Shown: positions 1 to 19,435 of the stretch, piece by piece
Numbering within the stretch: position 1 is the stretch's first letter
How the letters are laid out: every line of letters begins with the position of its first letter
NCBI RefSeq assembly: GCF_000186345.1
Contig: NC_014962.1
Coordinates: 4,492,450-4,556,449 of the forward strand
Length of the DNA stretch: 64,000 nt
Direction: 5' to 3'
Source of the DNA: Isosphaera pallida ATCC 43644
GTDB lineage: Bacteria > Planctomycetota > Planctomycetia > Isosphaerales > Isosphaeraceae
Position numbers and translations under genes: made by a program
Notes under the pieces: model-generated
The model's database searches: none
Told to the model about the DNA's origin: nothing
What the model saw: only the letters and a program-made list of their open reading frames with translations

Positions 1-160
1 TGCCTTGGATTCGTCGATGGGATAGGTCCGATCGGATTCAACCACCGTCCGCCACCGACCCACGCCCTTGCAACCTCGCCCTGGGTCGTCCTGTCCCGGT
101 TTGTTTGGCCTTGTCTTGTCCATCGCCTTCGATTCCGTCCCTCTGTCGAGACATCCACTC

Positions 161-1576
161 ATGGCCTGCTCCCACTCCATCCACGACCTCCTCGCGGGTC
201 GCGTTCCGTTCGAGAGTTCCGTTACAGTGCAGGGTTGGATCCGAACCCGCCGGGACTCCAAGGCCGGTCTCTCGTTCCTTCATGTGTCCGACGGCTCCTG
301 CTTTGCGCCAATTCAAGTGGTCGCCCCGGCCAACCTCCCAAACTACACCACCGAAGTCGTCCGTCTCACCACTGGCTGCGCCGTGATCGCCCACGGCAAA
401 CTCGTCCCCTCCCAAGGCAAGGGACAAACCCACGAAATCCAGGCCGATCGGATCGAGGTCGTCGGTTGGGTCGAAGATCCCGACACCTACCCTGTTTCAG
501 CCAAACATCATACGTTTGAATACTTGCGCACCGTCGCCCACCTCCGACCCCGCACCAACACCTTCGGCGCAGTGGCGCGGGTACGTCATTGCCTTTCGAT
601 GGCGGTCCACCGCTTCTTCCACGAACGCGGCTTTTTCTGGGTCCACACCCCCATCATCACCTCGTCGGACTGCGAGGGAGCCGGCGAGATGTTCAAAGTC
701 TCGACGCTCGATCTGAACAATCCGCCACGCGACGCCCAAGGCCAGATCGACCACTCCCAGGACTTCTTCGGCAAACCGGCTCATTTGACCGTCTCGGGTC
801 AACTCAACGTTGAAGCCTACTGCCTGGCGCTGTCCAAAGTTTACACATTTGGCCCCACCTTCCGAGCCGAAAACTCCAACACCACCAGACACCTCGCGGA
901 GTTCTGGATGATCGAGCCGGAAGTCGCCTTCGCCGACCTCGCCACCAACGCGGACCTCGCCGAGGAGTTTCTCAAGTACCTCTTCCGCGCGGTGCTGGAG
1001 GAACGTGCCGACGACCTGGCCTTCTTCGCCGATCGCATCGACAAGCAATGTGTCAACCGTCTGGAGACACTGACCAACGCCCAATTCGAACGCATGGACT
1101 ACGCCGAAGCGATTCGCATCCTCGAAGACGCTCAAACTCGCAAGTCGGCCTCCTTCGAATTTCCCATTCACTGGGGAGCCGACCTCCAGTCCGAACATGA
1201 ACGCTACCTCACCGAGACCCATGTGGGCCGACCCGTGGTGGTCATGAACTACCCCAAACAGATCAAAGCGTTCTACATGCGCCTCAATGACGACGGCCGC
1301 ACCGTCGCTGCGATGGACGTGTTGGCCCCCGGCATCGGCGAAATCATCGGCGGCTCCCAACGCGAGGAACGGCTCGACGTGCTGGACACGCGACTCGAAG
1401 AATTGAACCTCCCCAAGGACGAGTATTGGTGGTACCGCGACCTGAGACGCTACGGTACCGTGCCTCACGCCGGTTTCGGCCTCGGCTTTGAACGAACCAT
1501 CCTCTACGCCACCGGCATGTCCAACATCCGCGACGTCATCCCCTTCCCCCGCACTCCTGGTCATGCCGAATTTTGA
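161..1576 (+). CDS. asnS: Asparaginyl-tRNA synthetase
   Basis: Class IIb aminoacyl-tRNA synthetase of about 471 residues that charges tRNA-Asn with asparagine in the cytoplasm; E. coli AsnS has 466. The N-terminal OB-fold anticodon-binding domain (about residues 15-110, with [17 protein letters not shown]) is followed by the class II catalytic core. Visible signatures are the motif 2 stretch [20 protein letters not shown] and the C-terminal motif 3 [16 protein letters not shown]. The long loop after [11 protein letters not shown] separates AsnRS from AspRS. I start at the ATG at 161 because [11 protein letters not shown] matches the family start; the frame is open back to a TTG at 68, but that extension looks non-coding. 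The gene stands alone and nothing is visible about its regulation. Confidence 0.95.
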
Positions 1577-1829
1577 TCATTCGCTGTCAACGTTGTTCCT
1601 GGAAGTCTAACTCCGTCAGTCGAGACCCTCTCATTCTCATCATGTCGCCAACCGCTTGATTCGTTCGCCCCGCGGTTTGCGACACGCTTCCGCCCGGGTG
1701 TCGAAGACGGGAGGCAACTCAACAACCTCGAACCCACGATCGGCCTCGGGTTCGCCGCATCTTGATTCTTCCACCAATCAACGAGACAAATCGACCTTGT
1801 GTTGCCAAGTTTCACTCTTGAGTTCACTC
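1577..1829. other. Intergenic, no gene seen
   Basis: The spacer between asnS and the next gene is 378 bases long in total. I see no convincing reading frame or RNA gene in it. Its right end, from 1830, carries a promoter candidate listed separately. Confidence 0.5.
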
Positions 1830-1857
1830 TTGATTGGGGTTCGAAAACCGTTACAAT
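1830..1857 (+). promoter_or_regulatory. Candidate sigma-70 promoter
   Basis: TTGATT at 1830-1835 and TACAAT at 1852-1857 are separated by 16 bases. Both are close to the -35 and -10 consensus in an otherwise GC-rich spacer. It points at the gene starting at 1955 and would give a leader of about 90 bases. The assignment rests on sequence only. Confidence 0.4.
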
Positions 1858-2891
1858 CCCAACAGCCTTGACCAAACCGAAGCGGACTCAAGGGATTGGT
1901 TCGAAGCGATCGGCCTGGCCGGACGAATGCTCATCAACGCGAAGGATCGCGTCCATGTCACGCATGGTTTTCCACCCAGGATGGATGGGGCTGAGTCCCA
2001 CGACGCACTGCTCCACCTACGCCCGCCCTGGGCGCGGGCTTGAGCATCGGTGTCGGTGGTGGATAGCGGGGTTGGTGTTGATCGGGGCGTTGGGAGCGGC
2101 TCCGGCTTGGGGCGATGCGCTCCCCGAAGGATATCCTGGACTTTCGAGCGGGATTGGCGGCTCGGCGAGCTACCATTACGACTCGCGCCGCAACCTGGGA
2201 CTGTTGCGAGTCGAAAGCACGCCGTATTTGCTGAGCGTGGGACCGCGAAGCGACCAACGGGTGCGGATTGAATCGACACCGGAGCGGGAATGGTCCCAGA
2301 CCTTACTGGCCCGGATTGGACCTGACGGTCAGGTCGATCCGTTTGACTCGCCGGAAGATGGTGACGAAGCTAATCGGTTCGAGATTCGTGGGCGGATTCA
2401 AACACCTCGCGAGCTTTTGGAAGGGGTGCTGCTGCGGGGCGTGCCCCGCTCAGTGGAGTTTCGTACCGCGATTGAGGACGCGCTGGGAGACCAAGGGGGT
2501 TCGAACTCGTCGCGCGGTCTAGCAGTGGTCCAGTTAGATCGGATCGAGGGACCACTGCGGGATCGCTTTGGCGCTTCGGCGGAACTGGTGTTGGATTTGG
2601 GAATCGACGGGATTCAAAGCATCCTGGCGGAACAAGGGCGACTACCGACTCGCAATTTTGAGGCGCGGGGAGTCGAGGCCAGTTTATTAGCTCAAGCCAA
2701 TCGCCGGTTGGTAGTGCCAGCTCCGGAGCCGTCGTTGCTTTGGGCCGTGCTGGTCGGTCTAGCGGTCTTGAGTGTCGGTCGGGTGATTGGTTGGTCGGGT
2801 GGCGGGCCGGATGGCTGGCCACGGAGAGGACGTCCCCGACTCACCGGGCGTCCACCGCGTCGTCCCGCTTCCCGAACCAAACAATGGCGGC

Positions 2892-3797
<906 letters not shown>

Positions 3798-4419
3798 CTC
3801 CCGAGCTAAGTTGGATGCGATTCAACTAGCGCTGTGGAATCGCTCGACTCTCTCGGCAGGCGCGACTCATCCCCCCTGCCCAAACCACTCCCGGTTCGGG
3901 ACGATCACCTGATCCCCACCCAACGGACGGCGTCGCCACCGCCCGCAAGCGCTCGCGGTCTCGCGGTCCCCACTCGCCTTCAATACGCCACGTCAAACTC
4001 CGGACCTGCCGGAATCCGCCATCACGACGAAACGGACTCGATTGGATCAGTCCCATCGAGACCACGAACGGGTCGCCATCCTGGATCTCCGCGACGTCCT
4101 CCATCTCGCGTCGCTTGTTCTTTATCGTTCCTCTCGTGCGGGAACTTGAGAAGTTTCCAGAAACTTAGCGGATTTTTGGGATTGGGCAATTTAGCCAAAG
4201 ATTCCTTTTTCGCCTCGGTGCTCCACTCTTTGGCTTCAATCGGTTGTGTAGGCTAGATCCCCCTCCAATCAATTCAATTTCTATCAACCAAACGCCCTCC
4301 AGTCCGAAGGGGACTGGAGGGCGTTGGAAGGGGATGAAATGCAATGGAAAGGGAACGGAAGAGGAAGAGAAGAAAAGGAAGCTTCAACTAAGCAATCGCG
4401 TTAGCCACCCCCGCCATCC
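3798..4419. other. Intergenic between thioredoxin-fold and sigma genes
   Basis: This 622-base spacer lies between two minus-strand genes. It holds the hairpin at 4291-4325 and a small palindrome, AAGTTTCCAGAAACTT at 4151-4166, in the presumed promoter region of the sigma factor gene. Short open frames exist on both strands, but none has a good ribosome binding site or a recognisable product. Confidence 0.5.
4291..4325 (-). terminator. Perfect 15-bp hairpin, likely transcription terminator
   Basis: The arms AACGCCCTCCAGTCC (4291-4305) and its exact complement (4311-4325) enclose a 5-base loop. The hairpin lies 95 bases past the stop of the thioredoxin-fold gene. On the minus strand it is followed by a moderately T-rich stretch rather than a clean T-run. 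A terminator is the simplest reading; it could act in both directions. Confidence 0.6.
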
Positions 4420-4983
4420 TCAGGAGGTGCGCCACTTGATGTTGCAGCCGACGCTGGGAACTTGGTGAGGCGAGACTGGTCGGCCTTCGAGAACCGCGTC
4501 GATCGCGGCGCGGAGATCGGCTCCGGTGACCGGCTTGCCGTTGCCTGGTCGGCTATCGTCCATTTGACCACGGTAGACGAGCTTGCGGTCACGGTCATAA
4601 AGAAAGAAGTCGGGAGTGCAGGCCGCCTCGTAAGCGCGGGCCACTTCCTGGGTGGCGTCGAACAAATAGGGGAAGGTGTAACCCCGAGCCGCCACCTCTT
4701 CGACCATCCGCTCCGGCGCATCGTCGGGATGCGAGACCGGGTCGTTGGCGTTGATCCCAACCACCGCCACCCCCCGCGCTTGGGCGTCGCGGGCCAACGC
4801 GGCGAGCCCCTCGGCGATATGCTTAACATACGGACAGTGATTACACAGAAAGACGACAAGGAGCGCTGGGGCGTCGGCGAAGTCGGACAGACGGACCACA
4901 GCGTTGCCCTTAGCCGGTTCGGGCAGGGCAAAGTCGGGCGCGGGCGAACCGAGTTCCTTCATTGTCGAGGGGGTCAGGGCCAT
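4420..4983 (-). CDS. Thioredoxin-fold AhpC/TSA-family protein
   Basis: Redoxin-family protein of about 187 residues. The N-terminus (GSPAPDFALPEP) is the usual entry into an AhpC/TSA or thioredoxin-like fold. The active-site motif is FLCNHCPYVKH, a CxxC in which the second Cys precedes Pro, as in the TlpA/ResA-like and thioredoxin family proteins annotated near peroxiredoxins. A cis-Pro segment (ACTPDFFLYDRDRKLVYRG) follows. It should carry out thiol-disulfide exchange or peroxide reduction; there is no signal peptide, so it probably acts in the cytoplasm. The ATG at 4983 (MALTPSTMKELG) fits the family length; the frame is open further upstream but unlike a protein. A hairpin follows its stop. 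Confidence 0.85.
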   Translation of the reverse strand: MALTPSTMKELGSPAPDFALPEPAKGNAVVRLSDFADAPALLVVFLCNHCPYVKHIAEGLAALARDAQARGVAVVGINANDPVSHPDDAPERMVEEVAARGYTFPYLFDATQEVARAYEAACTPDFFLYDRDRKLVYRGQMDDSRPGNGKPVTGADLRAAIDAVLEGRPVSPHQVPSVGCNIKWRTS

Positions 4984-5194
4984 GAGGTATTGGCTCCCAA
5001 TGTGAGGTGACGATTCAACCCAACCGATCCATTGGCGGTCGGTCGCGCGGCGTCGAAGGTAACGCAATCGACCCGACCGATTCAACACGGTCGATGCCCT
5101 GGGCGACGATGGACGGGCCGCAATACCCGCTCCGTCGTCGCCAGTGTGTTCGTCCAAGACGAGTCAAACGGGAACCGCCCCCGTTCCGCAAGGC

Positions 5195-8100
5195 TCAGCG
5201 CCGTTCGGCGGCGGGTCGGAGGAAGACCTTACGATCGCTCCCGACGACGACCAGCGAGGAGCCGTCCCCGGCCAGCCCTAGCGTGGCGACCGAGTCAGCC
5301 CGTCCGGGAATCGGCAGGCTTAGAAGCGGGCCGCCGCCGTCGGGGCCGCCCAGCGCGACGAGATCGACCACGTTGCCCGAGGCCACCACCAAGCGATCGC
5401 CCCGTTGACTGAGCGCTAAGCGTCCGCCGGGACCGCCCGAGCTGCCGCCCCCGGCCCGCCAGGGACCGGCCGTATCGCCGGGGCCGAGACGCGGGGTGGC
5501 GTCAGCGGGGTTGAACAGTTCGATCGCAAAGTCGTCATGGGCCACGGTCCAGAGACTGGGCCCCACCGCCAAAGCGACGATTGGACTGGAGGAGCCGGTC
5601 TCCACCGTCTGAAGCGTTCGAGCGGTTTGCCCATCGAGCAACAGCGCGCGGACCTTGCCTTGTTCGCTGCGGACCCCAACGGCCAACCGCGCGTCGTCGT
5701 GCGACCAGGCCAAGGCCGTGACCGCGCCGCCTAGGTCGTCCGACTCAGCTCGGGCGCGGCCGTTAGTGGCGTCGCGGAGCCGAACCCGGCGATCCTCCAA
5801 CCCGCCGCCGGTGGCGAGATTCCGACCATTGCCCGAGAACGTCGCCGCCGTTGCGCCGCCGGAGTGGGGCGGTTCCAACACGACCTCCACACCCTGGGAG
5901 CTATTGGCCCCCTCGGGCGATTTCAGGCGGGTCGTGCCGTCGGGTTCGGCCAACACGACCAACCGGCCCGCCGGACCCAGCGCCAGGGGGAGGCCGGTTC
6001 GGTTGAGTTTGCCGAGGGCTTGGCCGTCGGCGGCACGATAGATCGCCAGGGAGGCCGAACCATCGTCGAGCAGGAAGGCGGCGTGGTCGGGGGCAAACCA
6101 CACGGTTTGGACCAATCCGACGGGGTTGGGCGTGACCGCCAGCGCCTCAGCGGAACGGCTGGCATCAAACGCCAAGACCGAGCCGTCGGGCCCGGCCAGC
6201 CAGACCCAGGGAGCCGCGCCACCGCCGGGAGCCGCGCTCAAGGCCACCGCGACTGGACCAGCACCGACGCCGCGATAGGTTTGGATCTCCACTGGCTTGG
6301 CAGGATCGGCCAAACTCCAAACCCGCGCCACCCCGTCCCCGGCGATTCCCGCCAGGACGCGGCCGTTGGCCCCCAGCGCGATCCGCTGGAACGGCGCGCC
6401 TGGCGAGGAGGCGTAGCCACCGGTCTGTTCCAGGTTGGGCAGCTTGTGGAACGACACAAAGCGGTCGTTGGTGGCGATCGCCACCAGGGGCGTGCCGTTG
6501 GCAGAGGCTAGGGCCACAACGGGCGCTTTAGATCGGCGGGCGTAGATCGCTTTGAGCGTCTTGCCGGTCGTCAGATCGAGCGCTGCGACCACGCCGCGGG
6601 CGTCGCCCACCACCACGGCAGAGGAGGCGACGGTGAGAACCTCGGCGTTGAGTTTGATTGACCAGGCGGGCTTGCCGTCGGCCACGTTCCAGACGTTGAC
6701 CGCATCGCCGCCGATGGCGACGACCCGATCGCCTCCAGGGGCCAGGCCGACCGCCTTGACCACCGCGCCCTGGTTGAACATGTTGTTGGCGGCCAGAGGC
6801 TGGCCGTTGTCGGTTCTCCAGAGCCGCACCGTGCCATCGGCGGCTCCGGCGGCAGCTACCCGCCCGTCGGCCGAGACTGCCAAGGCGGTCGCCGGGGCGG
6901 TTAGGCCTTCCAAGCGTTTGGCGGCGGCTTGACCGTCCACGAACAGCAGCAGCGCTGTGGGTTGGTCGCTTCGCGTCAACGCCACCTTGCCGTCGGCGGA
7001 TACGTCGAACAACGTGGTGGCGGCCGCCCCGAAGCCGCCGGCGTCGGCAATCGGCTCAACGAACCGGACGGGAACTTGGGCCAACCAGGTCAGCAGACCG
7101 TTTTCCAGCCCTAAATCGGCGTCGCCGGACAGGTCGCGGGCCTTGGCCAACGCAGTGCGGAAGCCGGCAAAATCGCCGGAACGCCAGGCGCTGGCGGCCC
7201 GATTCCAGGCTTGGCGGGTCAGCTGAGCTTCAAGATAGGCCCGGGTCTGATTGAGTTCGGATCGAACTCGACTCAAGACCGTTTCCGAGACCCCGGGTGG
7301 CGGAGTCGGTGTGGAGGACGTAGCTTGGGACGAGGCTTGCCGAGCCGCCTCCAGCGCTTGGCGGGCCTGCTCCCGTTCCTCCTCGGTGCCATTGAGTTCG
7401 ATTTCAAGCTGAGTGACACGGGCCCGGGCCTCGTCGAGTTGTCCCCTCAAACTCGCGCCATTCCAGCCCAGCCAGACGGCGACCAGGGCGAAGACCGCCG
7501 CGACCGCCCCCAGAATCAGCGGCAGGCGTCCACCACCTGTTGGACTGGCCGAACGTCCGGCGGATCGGTTCATCAGTTCGGCGAGGGCCTGACGCTGGGA
7601 ATCGACCTCCGACCCCGGCATGGTCAAACCCGCGGCAGCGGCCATCGCTGGGAATCCCTTGCCGCCGCGCGCGGTCTTCTGACCGGCGGTCGCCAGACGA
7701 CCGGCTACCGCCGCGGACGACACCGCCGGGGTCACCCCGCGCGTCTCGGTGGACGTCGCCGGGCTGAGCCAATCGCGTAGTTGATCCCAGCTTTCGATGA
7801 GGGCCTCGTGGGCCAGGTCGATCCAGGTGAGGGTGGGGTCGTCTGGCTCGGTTCGAAGAGTGAGCAAACGCTCAGAAACCAATCGGTCCACCACCGCGCG
7901 GGCGCGGTCGGGTTCTTCGAAGGCGGCTTCTAGGTCAGCCCGCGAGCGGGGTCGGCGAGTGCGGCGTTGAGTGACCAGCATCAGGAAGACCCGGCGGACC
8001 AGATCGACCGCGTCGGGACCAAATTCTGGGTCCTGGGCGATCGACTCGACCACTTCGTCGGCGTGACCCGCCAAAGCGCCGGAGAGCCCGCCCATCGTGT

Positions 8101-10432
8101 CGTAGTCGGCATGAGTGAACCGATTCGAGCCGCGGGCCACGGCTTGGCTCCAGAGCCGTTCCAGAGCGAAGGAAAGCAGAGGCAGGGGGGTCGAGGTCGA
8201 GCCGGGACTCAGGAGCCGCCCGGAGCCATTGGTTCCGTTGGCGAGTCCCCCCGCGTTGCGACCGTTGAGGGAGGGGGAGGAGCTGTCGAGCGACCCAGTG
8301 GCGACCTCGGCAGAGGAGCCGGCGATCCCCAATGCTGGATCGAGACCAGCGCGGGCGGCCAGGGAGGGGATGGCAACCTCTGAATCGGTCGAACCGGTTC
8401 CCGACTCCAGCGCGCCTGCGTTGCTTCGATCCCAACGCGAGAAGTCGGAGGGGTCCGAGGGTGACCCACCTCCCCAGCTTGCCCCCCCACCGCCCCCGAC
8501 GCGAACTGGAGCGCGGAGGACTGCCAGGGTGGGATCGGCCAGCAGGCGATCGACCAGACCCACGGCGTGTTCGGGGCGTCCGTCGTCGAGCGGGCCTTCG
8601 AATTCGTAGCCGTGACTCTCCGCCGGCTCGGTGATGATCGCCCGCAGTTCCTCCTGACCCGGCGGACGCAGGATATACGGGCGTTGCAAAAAGCCGCCCA
8701 GACCCGGCAACGTGGCCGCCGCCCCTAAAAACTCGCCTCGAAGCCCCAACACCACCCGCAAGGTCTCGGGATACTTCATCGCCGCCTCGCCCAAGGCGAT
8801 CGCCAGAGCATCGCGTCGAGCCAGATCGCGCTCGAGGGTGAACATCTCCTCAAACTGGTCGAAAATGAGCAAAAGCGGACGGCCCACGTTGCAACTGGCT
8901 GTCAGCAGCTCGCGCAGCGGCGGCAGCCAGTCATTGTAGGCCGGCAGATCCTCCACCGAAGCAAGTTCCTGGTCATCGCCCAGCAGGCTAGCCATGAGAG
9001 TGCGGGCCGGATGCGCGCCGGGCTTGAGCGTGACCACCCGCCAATTGAACACACCGGCCAGACCACTGTGTCTGACGGTGTGGGCCAACCCAGCACGGAG
9101 CAGCGAGGACTTGCCGACTCCCGGATCCCCCGAAACCGCCAGCACCGGCTCGTTCTCCAGGATCGCCAGCAATTCGGCGGTTTCGGCGTCGCGGCCCTGA
9201 AACTCGGCCGCGTCCCGCTCGCCAAAGCTGGCCAGGCCCCGATACGGCGAATCGAACAGGTAGAGGCCCCGCGGCGAGACGTCCCGCAGCACGCCCGGAC
9301 GGATCCAAAGCTCTAGAAGCGCCCAGGTTAGATCGTTCTCGGACAGCACCTCGCAGTTGAGGGCCTCCTCGTAGGGCAACCCGTTGGCAACGGCGCGGTA
9401 GAACTCGACGGCCATCTCGACGCCGGAGACCCCCGGGAGCGGACAGGAGGCTTGAACAACGGCCGCGAGGTCGCCGCCTCGGGGGTCCAGCAGCAACTGG
9501 GCGAAACCGGCGAACTGGCCCGGCTCCTGTTCGAGGTTCGTTTCGACGAATTGGAGGAATGCCAAATCGACCTGGCCTTCGCGGCACCATTCGGCCAATT
9601 CGCCCCCAGAGAGGGCCACCCGCTCCTCCTGGGGGTCGCACAGGATGATGTAGTCTCGTTCGCCATGCACGAGCAGGTGAACCACGTCGAAGCCGCCCTC
9701 GACGATCGCCCGTTGCAGACCGTTGCGGTCGGCTTTGCACAGAGGTTGGAACGGCTCGGGCGTCCAATTCTCCACCGGCTGATCGGTCACCGACGCCAAG
9801 GGGACCGCTCCCTCGGCACCCACGAAGAAGACCTCATAGCGGCCTTCCGTCTGATACAACGCCGCGGCTAAATCCCCCATCAGGTCCAGAAGTGCCGGCG
9901 CGGACACCTCGGGATGGGGAGGAATCGACTCGGCCACCGCCACCAAGATCCGAATCGGTTCGCCGCGGATCACCTTCTCTAACACCCGCGAGGTCTTGGG
10001 GGTGCAGCGTCCCACGATCCGAATAATTTGCGTGGGGGGGTCGCCCGGATTGGGCCTCAAGAGGTAAGCGTCCCGGCCCGGATCGCACAACAACCCAAAT
10101 GGCAAATCCCGCGCCGGCTCGTAAGGAGCGTCCACCAGCAGCCGCAATGGACGGTGTTGACGCCCCACCTGATTCAGTACCTCGGCCCACTTTCGACTGT
10201 TACGCGACCGGCCCAACAACGCCCGGTGCAACTCTCGGCCGGCCTCGCGGGCCTTGTCCGGCGTCACCAGGCTTGCCCCCCGCGCCAGTTGATCCAGCGT
10301 GGTCCCCTCGCTCAACAAGCCCGACGCCAGGCGATCTCCGGCACTCTCACCCAGATCCTCGGTGAACAACTCCACGCGGGTCTCATCGCCGTATTTTCCA
10401 ATCGCCAAACGAACATGATACGGTTGATTCAT
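5195..10432 (-). CDS. CHAT-STAND NTPase-membrane-WD40 giant protein
   Basis: A 1745-residue multidomain protein. Residues 1-390 resemble a CHAT (caspase-like, HetF-associated) domain: VVHLLVHGE supplies the expected His (H256), but the strand that normally ends in Ala-Cys reads AFLQFVETN, with Val296 where the nucleophilic Cys should be. SPYRGLASFGERDAAEFQGRD at about 393 is the classic lead-in to a STAND NTPase (nSTAND1) domain, with Walker A GDPGVGKSS (K441), Walker B LLLIFDQFEE (D525) and the later LPLLSFALERLWSQ winged-helix segment. A Gly/Ser/Asn-rich insert of about 100 residues precedes that segment. Residues 971-990 form one membrane helix, then a coiled coil (about 995-1100). From about 1120 to the end there are WD40-like blades (VSADGRVAAAGAADGTVRLW). 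STAND proteins with WD40 sensors act as ligand-triggered switches. The gene stands alone, divergent from the PSD1 gene. Its role is inferred. Confidence 0.85.
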   Translation of the reverse strand: MNQPYHVRLAIGKYGDETRVELFTEDLGESAGDRLASGLLSEGTTLDQLARGASLVTPDKAREAGRELHRALLGRSRNSRKWAEVLNQVGRQHRPLRLLVDAPYEPARDLPFGLLCDPGRDAYLLRPNPGDPPTQIIRIVGRCTPKTSRVLEKVIRGEPIRILVAVAESIPPHPEVSAPALLDLMGDLAAALYQTEGRYEVFFVGAEGAVPLASVTDQPVENWTPEPFQPLCKADRNGLQRAIVEGGFDVVHLLVHGERDYIILCDPQEERVALSGGELAEWCREGQVDLAFLQFVETNLEQEPGQFAGFAQLLLDPRGGDLAAVVQASCPLPGVSGVEMAVEFYRAVANGLPYEEALNCEVLSENDLTWALLELWIRPGVLRDVSPRGLYLFDSPYRGLASFGERDAAEFQGRDAETAELLAILENEPVLAVSGDPGVGKSSLLRAGLAHTVRHSGLAGVFNWRVVTLKPGAHPARTLMASLLGDDQELASVEDLPAYNDWLPPLRELLTASCNVGRPLLLIFDQFEEMFTLERDLARRDALAIALGEAAMKYPETLRVVLGLRGEFLGAAATLPGLGGFLQRPYILRPPGQEELRAIITEPAESHGYEFEGPLDDGRPEHAVGLVDRLLADPTLAVLRAPVRVGGGGGASWGGGSPSDPSDFSRWDRSNAGALESGTGSTDSEVAIPSLAARAGLDPALGIAGSSAEVATGSLDSSSPSLNGRNAGGLANGTNGSGRLLSPGSTSTPLPLLSFALERLWSQAVARGSNRFTHADYDTMGGLSGALAGHADEVVESIAQDPEFGPDAVDLVRRVFLMLVTQRRTRRPRSRADLEAAFEEPDRARAVVDRLVSERLLTLRTEPDDPTLTWIDLAHEALIESWDQLRDWLSPATSTETRGVTPAVSSAAVAGRLATAGQKTARGGKGFPAMAAAAGLTMPGSEVDSQRQALAELMNRSAGRSASPTGGGRLPLILGAVAAVFALVAVWLGWNGASLRGQLDEARARVTQLEIELNGTEEEREQARQALEAARQASSQATSSTPTPPPGVSETVLSRVRSELNQTRAYLEAQLTRQAWNRAASAWRSGDFAGFRTALAKARDLSGDADLGLENGLLTWLAQVPVRFVEPIADAGGFGAAATTLFDVSADGKVALTRSDQPTALLLFVDGQAAAKRLEGLTAPATALAVSADGRVAAAGAADGTVRLWRTDNGQPLAANNMFNQGAVVKAVGLAPGGDRVVAIGGDAVNVWNVADGKPAWSIKLNAEVLTVASSAVVVGDARGVVAALDLTTGKTLKAIYARRSKAPVVALASANGTPLVAIATNDRFVSFHKLPNLEQTGGYASSPGAPFQRIALGANGRVLAGIAGDGVARVWSLADPAKPVEIQTYRGVGAGPVAVALSAAPGGGAAPWVWLAGPDGSVLAFDASRSAEALAVTPNPVGLVQTVWFAPDHAAFLLDDGSASLAIYRAADGQALGKLNRTGLPLALGPAGRLVVLAEPDGTTRLKSPEGANSSQGVEVVLEPPHSGGATAATFSGNGRNLATGGGLEDRRVRLRDATNGRARAESDDLGGAVTALAWSHDDARLAVGVRSEQGKVRALLLDGQTARTLQTVETGSSSPIVALAVGPSLWTVAHDDFAIELFNPADATPRLGPGDTAGPWRAGGGSSGGPGGRLALSQRGDRLVVASGNVVDLVALGGPDGGGPLLSLPIPGRADSVATLGLAGDGSSLVVVGSDRKVFLRPAAERR

Positions 10433-10868
10433 CGGCCAACGCCCTCGTCTCGGTGTGGTCGGAACGACTCCCGGACCCGCTCGGAACCGACCCCCCTGGG
10501 GAAATCGCTTCTCAGTCCACGCCCGACATCCCCGACCCCCTCGCTCGCAAAGCGCCGGCCCACCCCGCGCGGGGAAGCCAACTCGCCGTCGGATTCACCT
10601 CGCCCACGCGGCATGGCGCCCGCGACGGCTCACCAACGGACACGGGGGCGCTGTCGGGCGCGCCTCGTCGTCAAACTAAGCATAGTTCCGTATTCCGAAA
10701 CCGACCTTACCCGACCCCCCCCTTTTTCCTGACCCTCGCAATCCCACTTTTTCCTCTCACCATCCCTATTTGCGGTAGGATTTTTTCGTTTCACTATTCA
10801 ATTTCTCAATTTTCGCAACAAACTATTCTCCTCACCCGATCGCCGCGTTGGGTCGCGCGACCCGAGAC
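10433..10868. other. Divergent intergenic region
   Basis: This spacer lies between the start of the CHAT-STAND gene (minus strand) and the promoter of the PSD1 gene (plus strand). Bases 10700-10850 are pyrimidine- and AT-rich compared with the rest of the window. No gene or RNA is recognisable. It should hold the promoter of the giant gene, but I cannot pin it down. Confidence 0.5.
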
Positions 10869-10897
10869 TTGATCGCGGGTCGTCCAGATCTTATAAT
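10869..10897 (+). promoter_or_regulatory. Strong sigma-70 promoter candidate for PSD1 gene
   Basis: TTGATC (10869-10874) and a perfect TATAAT (10892-10897) are spaced by 17 bases, the optimal distance. Transcription would begin near 10904, leaving a leader of about 70 bases with AAGGA at 10965-10969 just before the ATG at 10973. Confidence 0.65.
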
Positions 10898-10972
10898 AAC
10901 ACCATTGAGCGATTGCCAAACATTTGGCCAACTTGGCGGTCGGTGTGAGCGACCGAGGAAGGGCAAGGAACG

Positions 10973-13726
10973 ATGACCGCAAGCCAAGCAACTAGCACGG
11001 ATCGGTGGACTGCTCCTCGACTTGACCTCCTGGGAGGTTGGATCCTTCTGGCGGCGTTGGGAATCGGGGGCGTTCCGGAACCGTCCCAGGGTGGCGACGA
11101 GGTGACGTTCAACGCCCGCCCCGCGCCCGATTATCTCACCCAAATCAAGCCGCTGTTGACCGAGCGATGCGTTTCCTGCCACGGAGCGCTCCAGGCCAAG
11201 GCCGGGTTGCGGTTGGACGCGGCCCCTCTGATTCGCCGGGGAGGCGACGCGGGACCGATCGTCGAGCCGGGGCACGCCGACGAAAGCCTGCTCATCGACC
11301 GTGTCACCTCGACCGACTCCGACCGCATGCCTCCCGAAGGCCAACCGCTCTCCCCCGACCAGATCGACACCTTGAAGCGCTGGATTGACGCCGGCGCGAT
11401 CATGCCAGAGACCGAAGCGATCCCCCCGCTTCCCTCGCGGCACTGGTCCTTCCTACCGCCTCGCAAGGTCGATCTGCCTCAACTCGATCCCGCAGACAAA
11501 GCGGCTCATCCCATCGACGCCCTGCTGGAGGTCAAACGACGCGCCGAGGGGGTCTCCGCCGTCGGCCTGGCCGATCGCCGGACCTTGATCCGCCGCGTCA
11601 CCCTCGACCTGACCGGCCTAGCTCCCACTCCCGAGGAGGTCGCCGCCTTCCTCAACGACCCCAACGACGACGAGACCGCCTGGAACCACCTAGTCGATCG
11701 TCTCCTCGCCTCACCCCGCTTTGGCGAACGCTGGGCCCGTCATTGGATGGATGTCTGGCGCTATTCCGATTGGGCGGGTTACGGCATGGAGATCCGCGAG
11801 AGCCGTCCCCACCTTTGGCGTTGGCGGGATTGGATCGTCGAGTCGCTCAACGCCGACCGCCCCTATTCGGCTATGATCGAAGCCATGATCGCCGGCGACG
11901 AGGTCCGCCCCCACGACCCGGACACCCTGAGGGCCACCGGTTACCTGGCCCGCAACTGGCACCGCTTCAACCGCAACGTCCAACTCGAATCCACCGTCGA
12001 ACATTTGGGGAAAGGTTTTCTGGGTCTGACCCTCAACTGCGCGAAGTGTCACGACCACAAGTACGACCCGATCACCCAGGACGACTTTTATCGGATGCGG
12101 GCCTTCTTCGAACCGATCGACGTGAGGACCGACCGGGTTCCCGGTCAGGCCAACCTGGACAAGGACGGGGTCACCCGGGTTTTCGACGCCTTCGCCGACC
12201 GCCCCACCTATCTGTTGGTCAACGGCAACGAAGCCCAACCCGACACCTCCCGCTCGTTGACTCCAGGAACGCCCCGGTTTCTCGACCGGACCGCCGGCTC
12301 GACCGAGCACGCCATCACTCCGTTGACCCTGCCCCTGTGGGCCGTCGCTCCCGGCTTGCGGCCCTTCGTTCTGGTCGAAACCTTCGGACCCGTGCGAACT
12401 GCCCGCCGCGCGGCGTGGAACGACTTTCTTCAAGCCGACGCCGAAGTTCGCCGTTGGACCCAAGCGCGCGGTGTGGCCCCCCAAGACCCCGCCGTTTTGA
12501 AGGCGCGAATCGCCCGCGAGGCGTCGCGCCGCCGAGCGATTCAAACCCGCTGGGAGGAACTCGCGCTGGCGGCCCGCGCGGTCTGGACCGGCCTGGAGGC
12601 GACCCGCGACCCGTCGGCCCCCCGCGCAGTCGATCCAGCCCCGCTGGTGGGTCTGATCCAACGCTGGGCCGCTTGGACCAGCGCGGAGGCACGTCTGGCC
12701 ACCTTGGAGGCCGAACATGCCGCCCAACCGATCGACCCGGCCAACCCCGCCCAAGCCCAGACCACCCGCGCCGACCGGCTCAAGCAGCTCGACGAGGCCC
12801 GGACTCAACGCGACAAAGCCCGCGCCGGGCGGTTCGACTGGTCGCAAAAACCAACCCCCCTGGGCGACTTGCACCCCCCAACCTCGACCGGACGACGCCT
12901 CGCCCTAGCCCGCTGGATCGCGTCGCCCACCAACCCCTTGACCGCGCGAGTGGCCGTCAATCATGTCTGGATGCGCCACTTTGGCGCGCCGTTGGTCGGC
13001 TCGGTCGAAAATTTCGGCCTGAGAGGCCAATCCCCTACCCATCCCGAGGTGTTGGATTGGCTCGCGGTGGAATTCATGGAGTCGGGCTGGTCGTTCAAAC
13101 ACCTCCATCGCCTCATCCTCACCAGTCGAGCCTACCGCCTGCGTTCTGACACCCGCGACGCCTCAACTCAGACCATCCAACGCGACCCAGACAATCATTG
13201 GTACTGGCGAGCGCGGGTCAAACGGATGGAAGCCGAACTGGTGCGGGACAACCTCTGGTATCTCTCCGGAGGCCTGGACCTGACAATGGGCGGTCCCGAA
13301 CTGCCTCACGATCAGGGCGAAACGGTGGGACGGCGCAGCCTCTACTTCCAGCGCGCCCCAGAGAAGTCGATGCGGTTTTTGGACCTGTTCGACGCCCCCG
13401 GTCACGCCGAATGCTATCGACGCTTCACCACCGTCATGCCTCAACAAGCTTTGGCGCTAGTCAATTCGGCAATGGCGCTCCACCGCGCCGAGGCGCTGGC
13501 CGATCTCTTGAGCCAACTTCACCCTCCCACCACCGCCGAGTCCGACGCCGCCTTTCTGCGGGATGCCTTCGAGCGGGTGTTGAACCGCCCGCCTACCCCC
13601 GCCGAACTCGACGCCTGCCTGGAGTTTTTGGATGCCGCGCGTGCCCAACCAGACCAACATCGCCTCAACCGCATCGCGGCCGTTCATGTCCTCTTCAACC
13701 ACCACGATTTTGTCACGATTCGTTGA
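10973..13726 (+). CDS. PSCyt1/DUF1549/DUF1553 planctomycete cytochrome-domain protein
   Basis: A 917-residue protein of the planctomycete-specific PSCyt1-PSCyt2-PSD1 architecture. A hydrophobic N-terminal segment (LLGGWILLAALGIGGV) suggests export. CVSCH near residue 66 is the haem-binding motif of PSCyt1, in the usual setting of QIKPLLTERCVSCHG. PSCyt2 (DUF1549) spans about 180-390 and includes a second CxxCH at about 357 (NCAKCHDHKYDPITQDDFY). PSD1 (DUF1553) covers about 640-890 (TARVAVNHVWMRHFG, ENFGLRGQSPTHPEVLDWL). Function is not established; these proteins are thought to be exported, possibly redox-active and linked to polymer breakdown. The gene is followed after 86 bases by a DUF1501 gene, the usual partner. 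It has a good ribosome binding site and promoter. Confidence 0.93.
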   Translation: MTASQATSTDRWTAPRLDLLGGWILLAALGIGGVPEPSQGGDEVTFNARPAPDYLTQIKPLLTERCVSCHGALQAKAGLRLDAAPLIRRGGDAGPIVEPGHADESLLIDRVTSTDSDRMPPEGQPLSPDQIDTLKRWIDAGAIMPETEAIPPLPSRHWSFLPPRKVDLPQLDPADKAAHPIDALLEVKRRAEGVSAVGLADRRTLIRRVTLDLTGLAPTPEEVAAFLNDPNDDETAWNHLVDRLLASPRFGERWARHWMDVWRYSDWAGYGMEIRESRPHLWRWRDWIVESLNADRPYSAMIEAMIAGDEVRPHDPDTLRATGYLARNWHRFNRNVQLESTVEHLGKGFLGLTLNCAKCHDHKYDPITQDDFYRMRAFFEPIDVRTDRVPGQANLDKDGVTRVFDAFADRPTYLLVNGNEAQPDTSRSLTPGTPRFLDRTAGSTEHAITPLTLPLWAVAPGLRPFVLVETFGPVRTARRAAWNDFLQADAEVRRWTQARGVAPQDPAVLKARIAREASRRRAIQTRWEELALAARAVWTGLEATRDPSAPRAVDPAPLVGLIQRWAAWTSAEARLATLEAEHAAQPIDPANPAQAQTTRADRLKQLDEARTQRDKARAGRFDWSQKPTPLGDLHPPTSTGRRLALARWIASPTNPLTARVAVNHVWMRHFGAPLVGSVENFGLRGQSPTHPEVLDWLAVEFMESGWSFKHLHRLILTSRAYRLRSDTRDASTQTIQRDPDNHWYWRARVKRMEAELVRDNLWYLSGGLDLTMGGPELPHDQGETVGRRSLYFQRAPEKSMRFLDLFDAPGHAECYRRFTTVMPQQALALVNSAMALHRAEALADLLSQLHPPTTAESDAAFLRDAFERVLNRPPTPAELDACLEFLDAARAQPDQHRLNRIAAVHVLFNHHDFVTIR

Positions 13727-13812
13727 CCTTTCCAAAAGAAAAAGCGCCTCTCTCCGGATCATTCCACGCTTATTCCAGGCTTTCCCAGCGTTCGGTGAAA
13801 GGGTCTTTGATC

Positions 13813-15315
13813 ATGAAGACACATCATCATCATCAGTTGTTCGATTCGGCCACGCGGCGCGGCTTTCTGCGCGACCTAGGCTTGGGGTTCGGCGGCCTGG
13901 CGCTTGGAACCATGCTGGCTCAGGACCTGCTCCCAATCTCCTCCCAGGCAAAGGCCGACGAGCATCTGGGTTGGCGTCCTCCCGATGGGCGTCCCCATTT
14001 CGCGCCTAAGGCCAAAAGCGTCATTTGGATGTTCATGATCGGTGGCGTCAGCCAAGTCGAATCGTTCGACCCCAAACCGGAACTCGACCGCCACGACGGC
14101 AAAACCATCGCTGAGACCCCTCACGCCTCGATTCTGGAATCGCCTTACGTCAAGAAGAACGTGCGCGAACTGGTGGCCGGTCTGCACCCGGTTCAACCCA
14201 AGATCATGCGGATGCAGGTTGGCTATCGGCGTCATGGCCAATCCGGCCTAGCAATCTCCGACTGGTGGCCTCACCTCAGTCGGCACATCGATGATCTGGC
14301 GATTGTCCGTTCCATGTGGACCACCGATAACGACCACGGCGCTCAGCTCCAATTTCACACTGGACGCCACGTTCTTGAAGGTCGATTGCCCACCATCGGC
14401 TCCTGGGTCCACTATGGGCTTGGAACCATGAATGAGAATCTCCCCAAATATGTGGTTCTCGGCACCCCTCTGGCCGACTGCTGCGGGGGCATCGGCGGAC
14501 AGGGTTCTGGCTACCTCGGCCCCGAACATGAAGGGGTCCAACTCAAGGTCGATCCCCGAGAACCGATCCCTTACGCCTCGCCCGCCAAGCCCGTCCCCGA
14601 CGACCTGCAACGCCGCAAGTTCGCCCTTATCGATCGTCTCGACCGACTCGTCGCCCAGGACCACCCCGACGACCCCGCTATCACCGCGCGTATTCAATCG
14701 TATGAACTGGCGTTTCGGATGCAAATGGCTGTCCCCGAAGCGCTCGATTTCAAGCATGAGTCGGAGGAGACCACCCAGCTTTACGGGCTTCACCAGGACG
14801 CGACCCGCGACTTCGGCGCTCAGTGCCTGGCGGCGCGGCGGCTGGTCGAGCGAGGAGTACGGTTCGTTCAACTCTTCCACGGCTCCAATGGCGGAGCCGG
14901 AGCTTGGGACGCCCACGGCGGACTCAAGGCCAACCACGCTCAACAATGTGCCCAGGTTGATCAACCGATTGCCGCGCTGTTGACCGACCTCAAGCGGCGT
15001 GGTCTGCTGGAGGAGACTTTGGTAGTCTGGGCCACCGAATTCGGCCGCACCCCCGGTTCACAGGGAACCGACGGCCGCGACCATCACCCCTACGGCTTTT
15101 CGGTCTGGATGGCCGGTGGCGGCCTCAAGGGAGGCGTGGCCCACGGCGCAACCGACGAACTGGGCTTCCACGCCGTCGAGAACCGCCATTACGTCACCGA
15201 CATCCACGCCACGGTGCTGCACGCGCTGGGACTGGATTCGCGGCGCCTAGAGGTGCCAGGGCATCGACGGCTCGACATCGATCACGGCCAACCTATTCTT
15301 GAGCTGTTCGCATGA
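13813..15315 (+). CDS. DUF1501 family Tat-exported protein
   Basis: A 500-residue DUF1501 protein, a sulfatase/alkaline-phosphatase-like fold found mostly in planctomycetes next to DUF1549/DUF1553 genes, as here. The N-terminus contains the twin-arginine motif ATRRGFLRDLGLGFGGLAL, so it is probably exported folded. Conserved stretches include SVIWMFMIGGVSQVESFDPK, FGAQCLAARRLVERGVRFVQ, the ATEFGRTPGSQGTDGRDHHP block and the C-terminal HATVLHALGLD. I start at the ATG at 13813, preceded by GAAAGGG; the same frame is open upstream only because it overlaps the previous gene in another frame. Its stop overlaps the ATG of the next gene (ATGA at 15312-15315). The four consecutive histidines at residues 4-7 are natural. 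Confidence 0.92.
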   Translation: MKTHHHHQLFDSATRRGFLRDLGLGFGGLALGTMLAQDLLPISSQAKADEHLGWRPPDGRPHFAPKAKSVIWMFMIGGVSQVESFDPKPELDRHDGKTIAETPHASILESPYVKKNVRELVAGLHPVQPKIMRMQVGYRRHGQSGLAISDWWPHLSRHIDDLAIVRSMWTTDNDHGAQLQFHTGRHVLEGRLPTIGSWVHYGLGTMNENLPKYVVLGTPLADCCGGIGGQGSGYLGPEHEGVQLKVDPREPIPYASPAKPVPDDLQRRKFALIDRLDRLVAQDHPDDPAITARIQSYELAFRMQMAVPEALDFKHESEETTQLYGLHQDATRDFGAQCLAARRLVERGVRFVQLFHGSNGGAGAWDAHGGLKANHAQQCAQVDQPIAALLTDLKRRGLLEETLVVWATEFGRTPGSQGTDGRDHHPYGFSVWMAGGGLKGGVAHGATDELGFHAVENRHYVTDIHATVLHALGLDSRRLEVPGHRRLDIDHGQPILELFA

Positions 15316-16014
15316 GCATCTTTGCGGACTCCGAATCAAACACCCCGACCCCGCCGGAATCTGCAAACGACCCGACCATCTCGGGATCGGCTCCGCCCCC
15401 CGCGTCGCGCGGGCTTCAACATGGAACCGGATCGGGTCCGACTCTCATTGAATGGATGGCTTTAGTCGCCGGTTTGGCGGTGGCGTTCGCGTTGTTCGGA
15501 GAGCTGCTTCGATCCGACGACAACGAGGCCGCCTGGCATGTTTGGCCGTTGGCGATTCTAGGCGGCTTTGAGTTTGCCGATGCCCTGGCTGATCACGCGA
15601 CGACTGCGCAGCAAGCATCGACGCCAAGGCGCGACCACTCCGCCAACCTTGATGGACTGGACACCCTGGGAGTTCCTAGTGACGGTCCAGGGCTGGGCTG
15701 CATGGATGACATGGCCACCTGTAATGGTAATGAAGTGGAATGGGCAGAAGATCAGTGATTCCACCACTGATTGCACCTATTTTTTCGGAACTCCGTTGAT
15801 GAGTTTGGCCGTGCTGGCGGCGCTGATTCAAGCTCGTGGGATCAAGGGACTTCGGCAGCGGGCTCGGTTGGGCGAGGCTGATGCCAATCCGACCCGCCCT
15901 GCACGCCCACCCCTGCCCTGGACCACGACCTTCGCCATGATCCTGGGGGCGTTGTGGGCGCTGAGCGGCCTGCACTTCGTGATGCGGATGGTCTGGGAGG
16001 ATTGGCGTCGTTGA
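15312..16014 (+). pseudogene. Membrane protein split by a frameshift
   Basis: Two overlapping frames together make one membrane protein of about 234 residues. The first (from 15312, ATGA overlap with the DUF1501 stop) gives a Pro/Ser-rich start, a helix (IEWMALVAGLAVAFALFGEL) and AWHVWPLAILGG. The second gives LSLPMPWLITRRLR, a Trp-rich helix (WEFLVTVQGWAAWMTWPP), CTYFFGTPLMSLAVLAALI, and a last helix (FAMILGALWALSGLHF), ending at 16014. The join falls at the TTT at 15567-15569: with one T fewer, the frame runs straight through GGC GGC TTG AGT. The second frame has a TAG at 15559-15561, so it cannot start earlier. Similar small membrane proteins are familiar to me from Isosphaera relatives, without known function. 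Either a real disruption or a base error. Confidence 0.65.
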
Positions 16015-16102
16015 GGAGAGACAAATGGCAGCGGCGTGGCGCCAGTCGAATCCAAACCTAAGCAGACGCTTTCCTGTTTGGTTGGGTTGACGGTTCGATC
16101 GA

Positions 16103-17374
16103 TCAACCGCTGAACTGATGGAACGCCAGCACACTGATTGCGCCTAGGGCGGCGACCAGGGCGAGGATGAACAGCACCACCACGAAGCCCCCGGCGGGCG
16201 ATTTTTCGACCAACGCGGCCAACCAGTCGAACCAACCGGGATAGTTGGGCCGGACGGTGCGGACTTTGGCCTGTCCTGGCGCGGATCCTGGGTCGGCGTT
16301 GGAACCGGTGGGCGGCTTGGTCTGATGGTTAGAGGAGGCTGCGCCAGTGGCTTTGTCCTTGGTCAGCAGACGCTCCAAAGCGTCCGCGACCGCGCCGCAG
16401 CTGGGGAAGCGATCGTGGGCTTTGGTGGCCATCATCTTGTCCAGAATCGCCACCAATTCCGTGGGGATTTCGGGCCGGTGTTCCAAAATCGGGGCCGGAC
16501 GCCCGGTGATCCGGCGGCTGAGCCGCTCCATCGGATTGTTGCCGGGGAAAGGAAACTTGGCCGTGAGCAAGTAATACATGGTCACGCCCAGGTTGAATTG
16601 GTCCGATCGACCATCCACATCCTTGCCCATCGCTTGTTCGGGTGACATATAGTCAATTGTCCCCACAGCGATATTGTCAGCCGTTTGGAAGGTGGAGTTG
16701 GGGTCGTCCTCCATCAGCGCGCCGAGGCCTAGATCGAGGATTTTGATGGTTTCGCCATCCTCGGTGACGAAGAGATTGGAGGGTTTGACGTCGCGGTGGA
16801 CCACCCCCTGCTCGTGCGCGTGGTGCAACCCGCGTGCTGCTTGAATCGCGTAGCGGATCGCCAACTCAATAGGCAATGGACCGTCGGTCTTCAGAATATC
16901 CTGAAGGCTTTTGCCCTTGACGTACTCCATCACCAGGTAGAGCAGCTGGCCACGGGCGTCGGCGTCGTAAGCCCGCACCACGTTGGGATGGTCGAGCCGA
17001 CCAACCAACCGCATCTCGCGTTGAAAGCGGGCGACCGCCTTGTCCTTGCTGGTGATGTCTGAGGCGATTCGCTTGAGCGCCACCAGACGACCCATAAGGA
17101 TATGTTGCGCCTTAAACACCTCGCCCATTGAGCCTTTGCCGAGCCGGTCCAGGATTACGTAGCGACTGACCACCAGTTCGCGCCCGCGGCCGGCGATGAG
17201 TCGTTTGGCCATGAACGGGGTGAGGATCTTCTCGCTGATGAGCCGTTGGGCCAATCCTTGAAGATCGGTGGGGAAGTCGTTCTTGGCCGCTTGCTCGCGC
17301 AACTCGGCGAGCGCGCGGTCGGTGAGGATGCCGGCTTTCTGAATCTCGGTCAACAGATCAATCGTCTCGGCCAT
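16103..17374 (-). CDS. Membrane-anchored Hanks-type Ser/Thr protein kinase
   Basis: A 423-residue eukaryotic-like kinase. Residues 1-65 form a helical planctomycete-type extension (LLTEIQKAGILTDRALAELR, LAQRLISEKILTPFMAKRL). The kinase domain spans about 70-335: glycine loop LGKGSMGEVF, Lys101 in VALKRIA, the pairing Glu in FQREMRLV, catalytic loop HRDVKPSN (Asp195), metal site DLG (Asp214, in place of DFG), SPEQAM for APE, and DGRSDQFNLGVTMYYLL. A Pro/Thr/Ser-rich linker leads to one C-terminal membrane helix (GGFVVVLFILALVAALGAI), so the catalytic part should face the cytoplasm with almost nothing outside. All catalytic residues are present, so it should be active. The substrate is unknown. 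Confidence 0.92.
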   Translation of the reverse strand: MAETIDLLTEIQKAGILTDRALAELREQAAKNDFPTDLQGLAQRLISEKILTPFMAKRLIAGRGRELVVSRYVILDRLGKGSMGEVFKAQHILMGRLVALKRIASDITSKDKAVARFQREMRLVGRLDHPNVVRAYDADARGQLLYLVMEYVKGKSLQDILKTDGPLPIELAIRYAIQAARGLHHAHEQGVVHRDVKPSNLFVTEDGETIKILDLGLGALMEDDPNSTFQTADNIAVGTIDYMSPEQAMGKDVDGRSDQFNLGVTMYYLLTAKFPFPGNNPMERLSRRITGRPAPILEHRPEIPTELVAILDKMMATKAHDRFPSCGAVADALERLLTKDKATGAASSNHQTKPPTGSNADPGSAPGQAKVRTVRPNYPGWFDWLAALVEKSPAGGFVVVLFILALVAALGAISVLAFHQFSG

Positions 17375-17592
17375 CTCCGCTCCCCTGACATGAACGTCGG
17401 CGCGCCGAACCGGGCGTGATGCGGGTCGGTTGGCCTGGCTGATTCCAAACCGTTCGGACCGCGGCGATCCTGGGATCCACCGGCTGCGACCGCCATGATT
17501 CCATCATCCACCTCGGCTTTGCCCCGCGCGACGTGGTCTGAAGTATTTTGGCACACTTCCGTCTCCCAAGTAAGGAATCAGCGTGGCCATGA

Positions 17593-17634
17593 CGCCGAAA
17601 TTCCAGCGTCTTGGAGGGGGTGGGAATTTCGGCG
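17593..17634. repeat. 12-bp perfect inverted repeat
   Basis: CGCCGAAATTCC at 17593-17604 is repeated as its exact complement at 17623-17634 with an 18-base G-rich loop. It lies 44 bases past the stop of the esterase gene and about 220 bases before the kinase start. It may be a terminator, though no T-run follows on either strand, or a protein-binding site for the kinase gene. The rest of the 303-base spacer 17375-17677 shows no gene. Confidence 0.5.
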
Positions 17635-17677
17635 AAATCGCCCCCGTTGATTGACCAACAATCGGGGCAGGGTTAGG

Positions 17678-18388
17678 TTATCCACGACGATGATCCAAGA
17701 GCCAACGGTAGAGCTCGGGATTGGCGTAAGTTTCAGTCCAAGAATCGTGACCCGCTTCGGGATACACTGTCAGCTTGGCGTCGCCCCCTTGGTCTTGCCA
17801 TGCTTTGACCATCTCTTCGGAAGCCCGAAGCGGTACCACCGGGTCACGCGCCCCGTGAAAGGCCCACACCGGCACTTCCTTAGCGGGGGTCAAACGCGCC
17901 AAGATCGGCGAACCACCGCCACAAATCGGCACCGCTGCGGCGAAACGCCGCGGTTGGCTGGTCACCAACGCCCAGACGCCGTACCCTCCCATGCTCAGTC
18001 CCGTGACAGAAATCCGGCTCCGATCCACCTTGAGCTCCCGCTCCAAATCGTCTAACAACGCCAGCAGAGTTTCCACGCTCCAGTATTGATCCGTCGGACA
18101 CTGGGGAGCCACTACAATGAATTGGGAGCAGGGGGTGGGTCGTCCCGAGGCCAGTAGCTTGGGCGGACCATGGGCTTTGACCTTCTCCAGATCTTCCCCG
18201 CGCTCCCCCGCGCCATGCAGGAACAGCAACAGTGGACAGCTCTCTCTGGCTGCGTAATCCGGCGGCAAATGCAACCAGTAGGAAAGGCGGGTCGGGATCG
18301 TCCCCTTCCAGTCCCGGCGTTCCAGAGATCCAGGTATCAGCGATTGGGAAAGTTGGGGAGACTCGGAAGGATCGGAAAAGGTGAACAT
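17678..18388 (-). CDS. Alpha/beta-hydrolase esterase
   Basis: A 236-residue serine hydrolase of the dienelactone-hydrolase/carboxylesterase type, similar to the stand-alone esterase or peptidase S9-like domains common in planctomycetes. The oxyanion region is LLLFLHGAGERG. The nucleophile elbow is GLSMGGYGVW. The acid is the Asp in HGARDPVVPL and the base the His in YPEAGHDSW. There is no signal peptide, so it should be cytoplasmic as written. An N-terminal WKGTIPTRLSYWLHLPPDY fits the first beta strands. The substrate cannot be read from sequence. It lies between the kinase gene and a long spacer; an inverted repeat follows its stop. Confidence 0.85.
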   Translation of the reverse strand: MFTFSDPSESPQLSQSLIPGSLERRDWKGTIPTRLSYWLHLPPDYAARESCPLLLFLHGAGERGEDLEKVKAHGPPKLLASGRPTPCSQFIVVAPQCPTDQYWSVETLLALLDDLERELKVDRSRISVTGLSMGGYGVWALVTSQPRRFAAAVPICGGGSPILARLTPAKEVPVWAFHGARDPVVPLRASEEMVKAWQDQGGDAKLTVYPEAGHDSWTETYANPELYRWLLDHRRG

Positions 18389-19398: not shown

Positions 19399-19435
19399 TC
19401 CATTGGCCTCTGGACGATGCGAGGGCCAACCCAGC

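What the first reader, a model, noticed from the sequence alone, without database searches (positions are those of the whole stretch)
5195..10432. CHAT-STAND-TM-WD40 giant with an apparently dead CHAT protease site
The sequence shows a CHAT-like N-terminus joined to a STAND NTPase, a membrane helix, a coiled coil and a long WD40 array. Known: STAND proteins with sensor repeats and protease-like effectors are proposed conflict or immune switches in bacteria. Seen here: the His box (VHGE, H256) remains, but the strand expected to end in Ala-Cys reads LQFVETN with Val at 296. Inference: the domain may be a non-cleaving adaptor that recruits or regulates a separate active protease, or uses another Cys (CPLP near residue 330). 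The membrane helix between NTPase and sensor would put the WD40 blades on the other side of the membrane from the NTPase, so it could sense an outside signal.
Basis: partly seen in the sequence, partly recalled or inferred. Interest (0 to 1): 0.72.

Follow-up and report, generated by a model that had tools for sequence, protein, structure and literature searches.

The report
Membrane STAND receptor with dead CHAT
A giant, so far one-of-a-kind protein of the filamentous hot-spring bacterium Isosphaera pallida has the layout of a bacterial immune-type receptor, but its caspase-like front end has lost the cutting residue, so it more likely passes on its signal by binding partners than by cutting proteins.

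Summary
Window 5195-10432 (minus strand) encodes an intact 1745-aa protein: CHAT-like domain (1-395), nSTAND1 NTPase with intact P-loop, one membrane helix (about 970-990), helical linker, WD40 repeats. Pfam misses the CHAT domain, but profile-profile comparison (score 50 against at most 22 for shuffles and control proteins), several alignments and an MSA-based AlphaFold model (best PDB hits SAVED-CHAT, then caspases) support it. These place H256 at the catalytic His and V296 at the catalytic Cys; the codon is two base changes from Cys. C330 aligns with a Trp of the next strand, a poor substitute. The same architecture with an intact dyad occurs in Nostocales. No relative of this CHAT domain was found in planctomycetes, so conservation of the dead site cannot be tested.

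Recruitment of a separate active CHAT/caspase is weakened: the genome has one nSTAND1, no detectable C14 caspase, and one other detectable CHAT, itself without the Cys. Best reading: a transmembrane STAND switch whose CHAT domain is a non-cleaving binding module. Inactive caspase-like effector domains are already described in bacterial conflict systems, so this is a new variant, unusual but not a new kind.

The parts
9248..10432 (-). CHAT-like domain, residues 1-395
   Evidence: hhalign to CHAT profile, P 1.3e-6; AlphaFold model with MSA, best PDB hit SAVED-CHAT E 1.1e-6
9665..9667 (-). H256, retained catalytic His position
   Evidence: Aligned with the CHAT His in hhalign and MAFFT
9545..9547 (-). 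V296 (GTC), at the position of the catalytic Cys
   Evidence: Aligned with the CHAT Cys; codon; end of strand 290-297 in the model
9443..9445 (-). C330, the candidate alternative nucleophile
   Evidence: After strand 324-329; aligned with the Trp of other CHATs; disfavoured
7760..9247 (-). nSTAND1 NTPase, Walker A GDPGVGKSS (435-443), Walker B LLLIFDQFEE (520-529)
   Evidence: Pfam PF20703 E 2.8e-79; two-part match in the genome; motifs read from sequence
8198..8515 (-). Gly/Ser-rich low-complexity insert inside nSTAND1 (about 640-745)
   Evidence: Sequence; lies between the two nSTAND1 matches
7463..7525 (-). Predicted membrane helix, residues 970-990
   Evidence: Hydropathy maximum 2.59
7313..7453 (-). 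Probable coiled coil, about 994-1040
   Evidence: By eye from sequence; not tested with a program
5195..7003 (-). WD40 propeller region, about 1144-1745, and stop codon
   Evidence: Pfam WD40 and propeller models

Best explanation
It is a membrane-anchored STAND receptor whose output domain is a pseudoprotease. Shown by sequence: a CHAT-fold domain that keeps the catalytic His but has Val for the catalytic Cys, joined to an NTPase with intact nucleotide-binding motifs, a membrane helix and WD40 repeats. Inferred: the propeller, probably on the far side of the membrane, binds a signal; the nSTAND1 domain exchanges nucleotide and self-assembles on the cytoplasmic side; this clusters the CHAT domains, which act by binding a target peptide or partner protein, as scaffold or competitor, and not by cleavage. 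The partner is unlikely to be another CHAT or caspase of this organism, because no intact one is detectable.
For: CHAT homology; V296 at the Cys position with a two-change codon; intact ORF and nSTAND1 motifs; same architecture with intact dyad in Nostocales; membrane helix in the same place in homologues; no intact CHAT or C14 caspase detected in the genome. Precedent: about 70% of caspase domains fused to vWA in MoxR-vWA conflict systems are inactive and were proposed to be dominant-negative or peptide-binding (PMC7159879). Two related Isosphaeraceae genomes keep another CHAT lacking the dyad at 75% identity.
Against: Known from one genome, so no proof that the dead site is kept by selection. 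No partner identified. Function, nucleotide switching, assembly and topology are all inferred. A relocated nucleophile is not formally excluded.
Confidence: 0.5

Rival explanations
1. Relic: a formerly active CHAT-STAND effector that lost its nucleophile in this lineage and is drifting, or is tolerated as a disarmed suicide protein.
For: Single-genome occurrence; strong sequence divergence of the CHAT domain, missed by Pfam.
Against: The 1745-codon frame, the NTPase motifs and normal codon-position composition are intact; His, fold and the residue after the Cys (E297) are kept.
Confidence: 0.25
2. Adaptor for a separate active CHAT or caspase, in the manner of Apaf-1 or the pseudocaspase FLIP.
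For: Analogy with eukaryotic NLR and pseudocaspase signalling (PMC7586951 listed; PMC7159879).
Against: No intact CHAT or C14 caspase detected in the genome and none among the neighbours scanned.
Confidence: 0.1
3. Still a protease, using another nucleophile such as C330.
For: H256 is kept; C330 is one of eight Cys, at the end of the neighbouring strand.
Against: C330 aligns with the Trp of active CHATs, not with the nucleophile.
Confidence: 0.1
4. Decoy: the dead CHAT domain traps phage inhibitors aimed at active CHAT proteases.
For: Decoy action of inactive enzymes was proposed for related conflict systems (PMC7159879).
Against: Those cases have an active counterpart in the same cell; none is detected here.
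Confidence: 0.05

Closest known systems
CHAT-nSTAND1-WD40 proteins of Nostocales (e.g. ARV63383.1, plasmid pHT582-1 of HT-58-2; L048-L052)
   Same: Order CHAT, nSTAND1, hydrophobic stretch, WD40
   Different: Short CHAT with intact His and Cys (IVHFSGHG, LLNACYSE); C-terminal Cys pair that P0001 lacks
Caspase(C14)-nSTAND1-WD40 proteins of Isosphaeraceae (G430: L040, L041)
   Same: Closest nSTAND1 in the order (35-36% identity), WD40 sensor
   Different: N-terminal domain is a C14-type caspase with intact motifs, not a CHAT
Inactive caspase/trypsin effector domains of MoxR-vWA conflict systems (PMC7159879)
   Same: Caspase-superfamily domain without catalytic residues in an NTPase-gated system
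   Different: Fused to vWA in a multi-gene system; no such neighbours here
Pseudo-orthocaspases (PMC6426788)
   Same: Bacterial caspase-fold proteins that lost the His-Cys dyad
   Different: C14 p20 family; this domain matches CHAT and not a small C14 profile
Apaf-1 / NLR apoptosome proteins
   Same: STAND NTPase with WD40 sensor and a non-enzymatic N-terminal output domain (PMC7159879, and general knowledge)
   Different: CARD and not a dead CHAT; soluble; recruits an active caspase

Membership tests
CHAT domain (PF12770), by descent and fold | Profile similarity and caspase-like fold | tested here: met
   hhalign P 1.3e-6 with controls; model and Foldseek, partly circular. Pfam's own HMM does not reach E=1
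CHAT protease (active) | Catalytic His | tested here: met
   H256
CHAT protease (active) | Catalytic Cys | tested here: not met
   V296 at the position
nSTAND1 (PF20703) | Score above curated cut-off, Walker A and B | tested here: met
   267.9 bits against 27.1; motifs in sequence
WD40-sensor STAND receptors | C-terminal WD40 propeller | tested here: met
   PF00400 49.3 bits against 27
WD40-sensor STAND receptors | Nucleotide-driven oligomerisation | not testable with these tools
   Needs biochemistry
Peptidase C14 caspase / pseudo-orthocaspase | C14 (p20) profile match | tested here: not met
   No Pfam C14 hit; hhalign to a three-sequence C14 profile 17.7, background level
Known anti-phage defence system | Match to a PADLOC model | tested here: not met
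   No PADLOC match; neighbours scanned are housekeeping or planctomycete-typical

The most novel reading that the evidence does not exclude
A transmembrane, NLR-like bacterial receptor that signals through a pseudoprotease: nucleotide-driven clustering of dead CHAT domains acts as a binding platform, a bacterial counterpart of pseudocaspase or Apaf-1 signalling with no active caspase-type partner in the cell.
Probability: 0.25. Interest if true: 0.6.

Novelty: new variant of a known kind. Interest (0 to 1): 0.4.

Why it matters
If the CHAT domain is a genuine non-cleaving output module, proteolysis is not the only way CHAT-STAND receptors act, and bacterial proteins annotated as CHAT peptidases should be checked for the dyad before a cell-death role is assigned. 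In the small Isosphaeraceae sample aligned here, 4 of 23 Pfam CHAT domains lack the Cys.

Tried and rejected
Homologues of residues 1-393: none in 392 phylum genomes, genome contigs or plasmids; the only order hit (G377, E 8.7e-4) lies in a Ser/Thr-kinase protein and was rejected as spurious. No other genome of 392 had CHAT and nSTAND1 parts in one match. Single-sequence AlphaFold failed (pLDDT 34.7). Two-sequence MAFFT alignments and A8 misplace the Cys strand by a gap. Viral-contig scans found few CHATs, used only to build the MSA. PDB sequence search gave nothing relevant; no Rfam hit in window 1-20000. Viral fold library: no match at E 0.001. Sequencing or frameshift error rejected. DdvA (weak fold match) as a precedent: no text found, dropped.

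Full report
What is there. The window lies in a 5,529,304-base genome of two contigs, the larger 5,472,964 bases, the same figures as the published genome of Isosphaera pallida IS1B, a filamentous hot-spring planctomycete (PMC3072084). The finding is an intact minus-strand ORF, 5195-10432, 1745 aa. Its codon-position GC pattern matches neighbouring genes along its whole length. Pfam finds nSTAND1 at 396-615 plus a second part, and WD40-type repeats, but no CHAT at E=1; PADLOC finds nothing.

Is the N-terminus a CHAT domain? Yes, by several partly independent lines. Residues 1-395 were compared by hhalign with a profile of 29 CHAT domains (23 from Isosphaeraceae, 6 cyanobacterial): score 50.0, P 1.3e-6, probability 90.6% over 245-360. 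One hundred shuffles reached at most 22.2; eleven other window proteins and two other parts of this protein at most 21.3; a small C14 caspase profile gave 17.7. AlphaFold without an alignment failed. With an alignment of nine sequences, residues about 150-360 reached pLDDT of mostly 50-90, with H256 at the end of strand 250-257 and V296 at the end of strand 290-297. Foldseek's best PDB matches were SAVED-CHAT (E 1.1e-6), followed by caspases. The fold test is partly circular because the alignment consists of CHATs.

Is the site dead? hhalign and MAFFT alignments on overlapping sequence sets put H256 on the catalytic His and V296 on the catalytic Cys. Two-sequence MAFFT alignments and A8 shift that strand by a gap; the larger alignments and the profile comparison agree with each other and are preferred. 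The codon is GTC, two changes from a Cys codon, and the residue before it (Phe, TTC) is two changes from an Ala codon; no other frame supplies an Ala-Cys. C330 follows the next strand and aligns with the CHAT tryptophan, so it is a poor replacement, though distances were not measured. Loss of activity is therefore predicted, not shown.

Relatives. No relative of residues 1-393 was found in 392 planctomycete genomes, the 45 genomes held for the order, genome contigs or plasmids. A combined CHAT-nSTAND1 profile found both parts in one match only in I. pallida among 392 genomes. The same domain order with intact His and Cys occurs in Nostocales. The nearest nSTAND1 proteins in the order carry a C14-type caspase with intact motifs instead. 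Because the dead site is known from a single genome, its conservation cannot be tested.

Topology. The hydropathy maximum is at residues 970-990, between NTPase and propeller; most full-length homologues have a hydrophobic stretch there preceded by an Arg-rich segment (in L049 the best-scoring stretch lies elsewhere). This protein has no Cys after residue 514; at the Cys frequency of ten window proteins, none in 756 residues has probability about 0.001, but Ala/Gly bias weakens that. Most homologues have a Cys pair near the C-terminus, compatible with a disulphide outside the cytoplasm. A far-side propeller is therefore plausible but inferred; the charge bias of this protein's own helix is weak.

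Partners. The genome has one nSTAND1 (two-part match), no detectable C14 caspase and one other detectable CHAT, in a 1418-aa protein. That domain has Trp in the Cys column; the aligner places a THG in the His column only through an inserted stretch, and without that gap the His is missing too. A CHAT-profile search found nothing further. The neighbours scanned are an aminoacyl-tRNA synthetase, a sigma factor, an AhpC/TSA protein, planctomycete cytochrome and DUF1501 genes, a kinase and an esterase. Recruitment of a separate active CHAT or caspase is thus weakened, with the caveat that the same searches also miss the CHAT domain under study.

Mechanism and context. The best-supported reading is a membrane-anchored STAND switch whose CHAT domain serves as a binding module. 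Shown: domain order, motif status, predicted fold. Inferred: topology, assembly, output by binding. Kaur et al. [quoted passage not shown] pseudo-orthocaspases are 8.6% of bacterial caspase homologues (PMC6426788). In the Isosphaeraceae set here, 4 of 23 Pfam CHATs lack the Cys; two of them (L035, L036) share a Ser/Val state in two genomes at 75% identity. Conservation in that pair is an argument by analogy only; those proteins are not orthologues of this one. The finding is therefore a new variant of a known kind.

Noticed in passing
L005:6431-10687 (minus), about G000:C2:4736430-4740686: The genome's other CHAT protein (1418 aa) has also lost the catalytic Cys (Trp in its place) and probably the His.
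   Followed up: partly
L035 and L036 (G414, G413): CHAT proteins 75% identical over 869 aa in two genomes of one genus, both with Ser for His and Val for Cys: a CHAT without the dyad that is inherited.
   Followed up: partly
L029 (G416): Another Isosphaeraceae CHAT with Arg and Ser in the His and Cys columns.
   Followed up: no
L040:7900-15693 and L041:5431-11271 (G430): Giant C14 caspase-nSTAND1-WD40 proteins (2597 and 1946 aa) with intact caspase motifs, near recombinase-like ORFs.
   Followed up: no
L041:13517-17206 (G430): A 1229-aa protein next to a caspase-STAND gene with what look like three caspase-like segments, the later ones apparently degenerate.
   Followed up: no
L048, L050, L051, L052, L057, L058, L059: nSTAND1-WD40 homologues share a Cys pair about 17-26 residues apart near the C-terminus, absent from the window protein.
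   Followed up: partly
L073, L074 (IMG/VR contigs): CHAT proteins on predicted viral contigs with SHAG in place of the usual THG, catalytic Cys kept.
   Followed up: no
window 8198-8515 (minus): A Gly/Ser-rich insert of about 100 aa interrupts the nSTAND1 domain.
   Followed up: no
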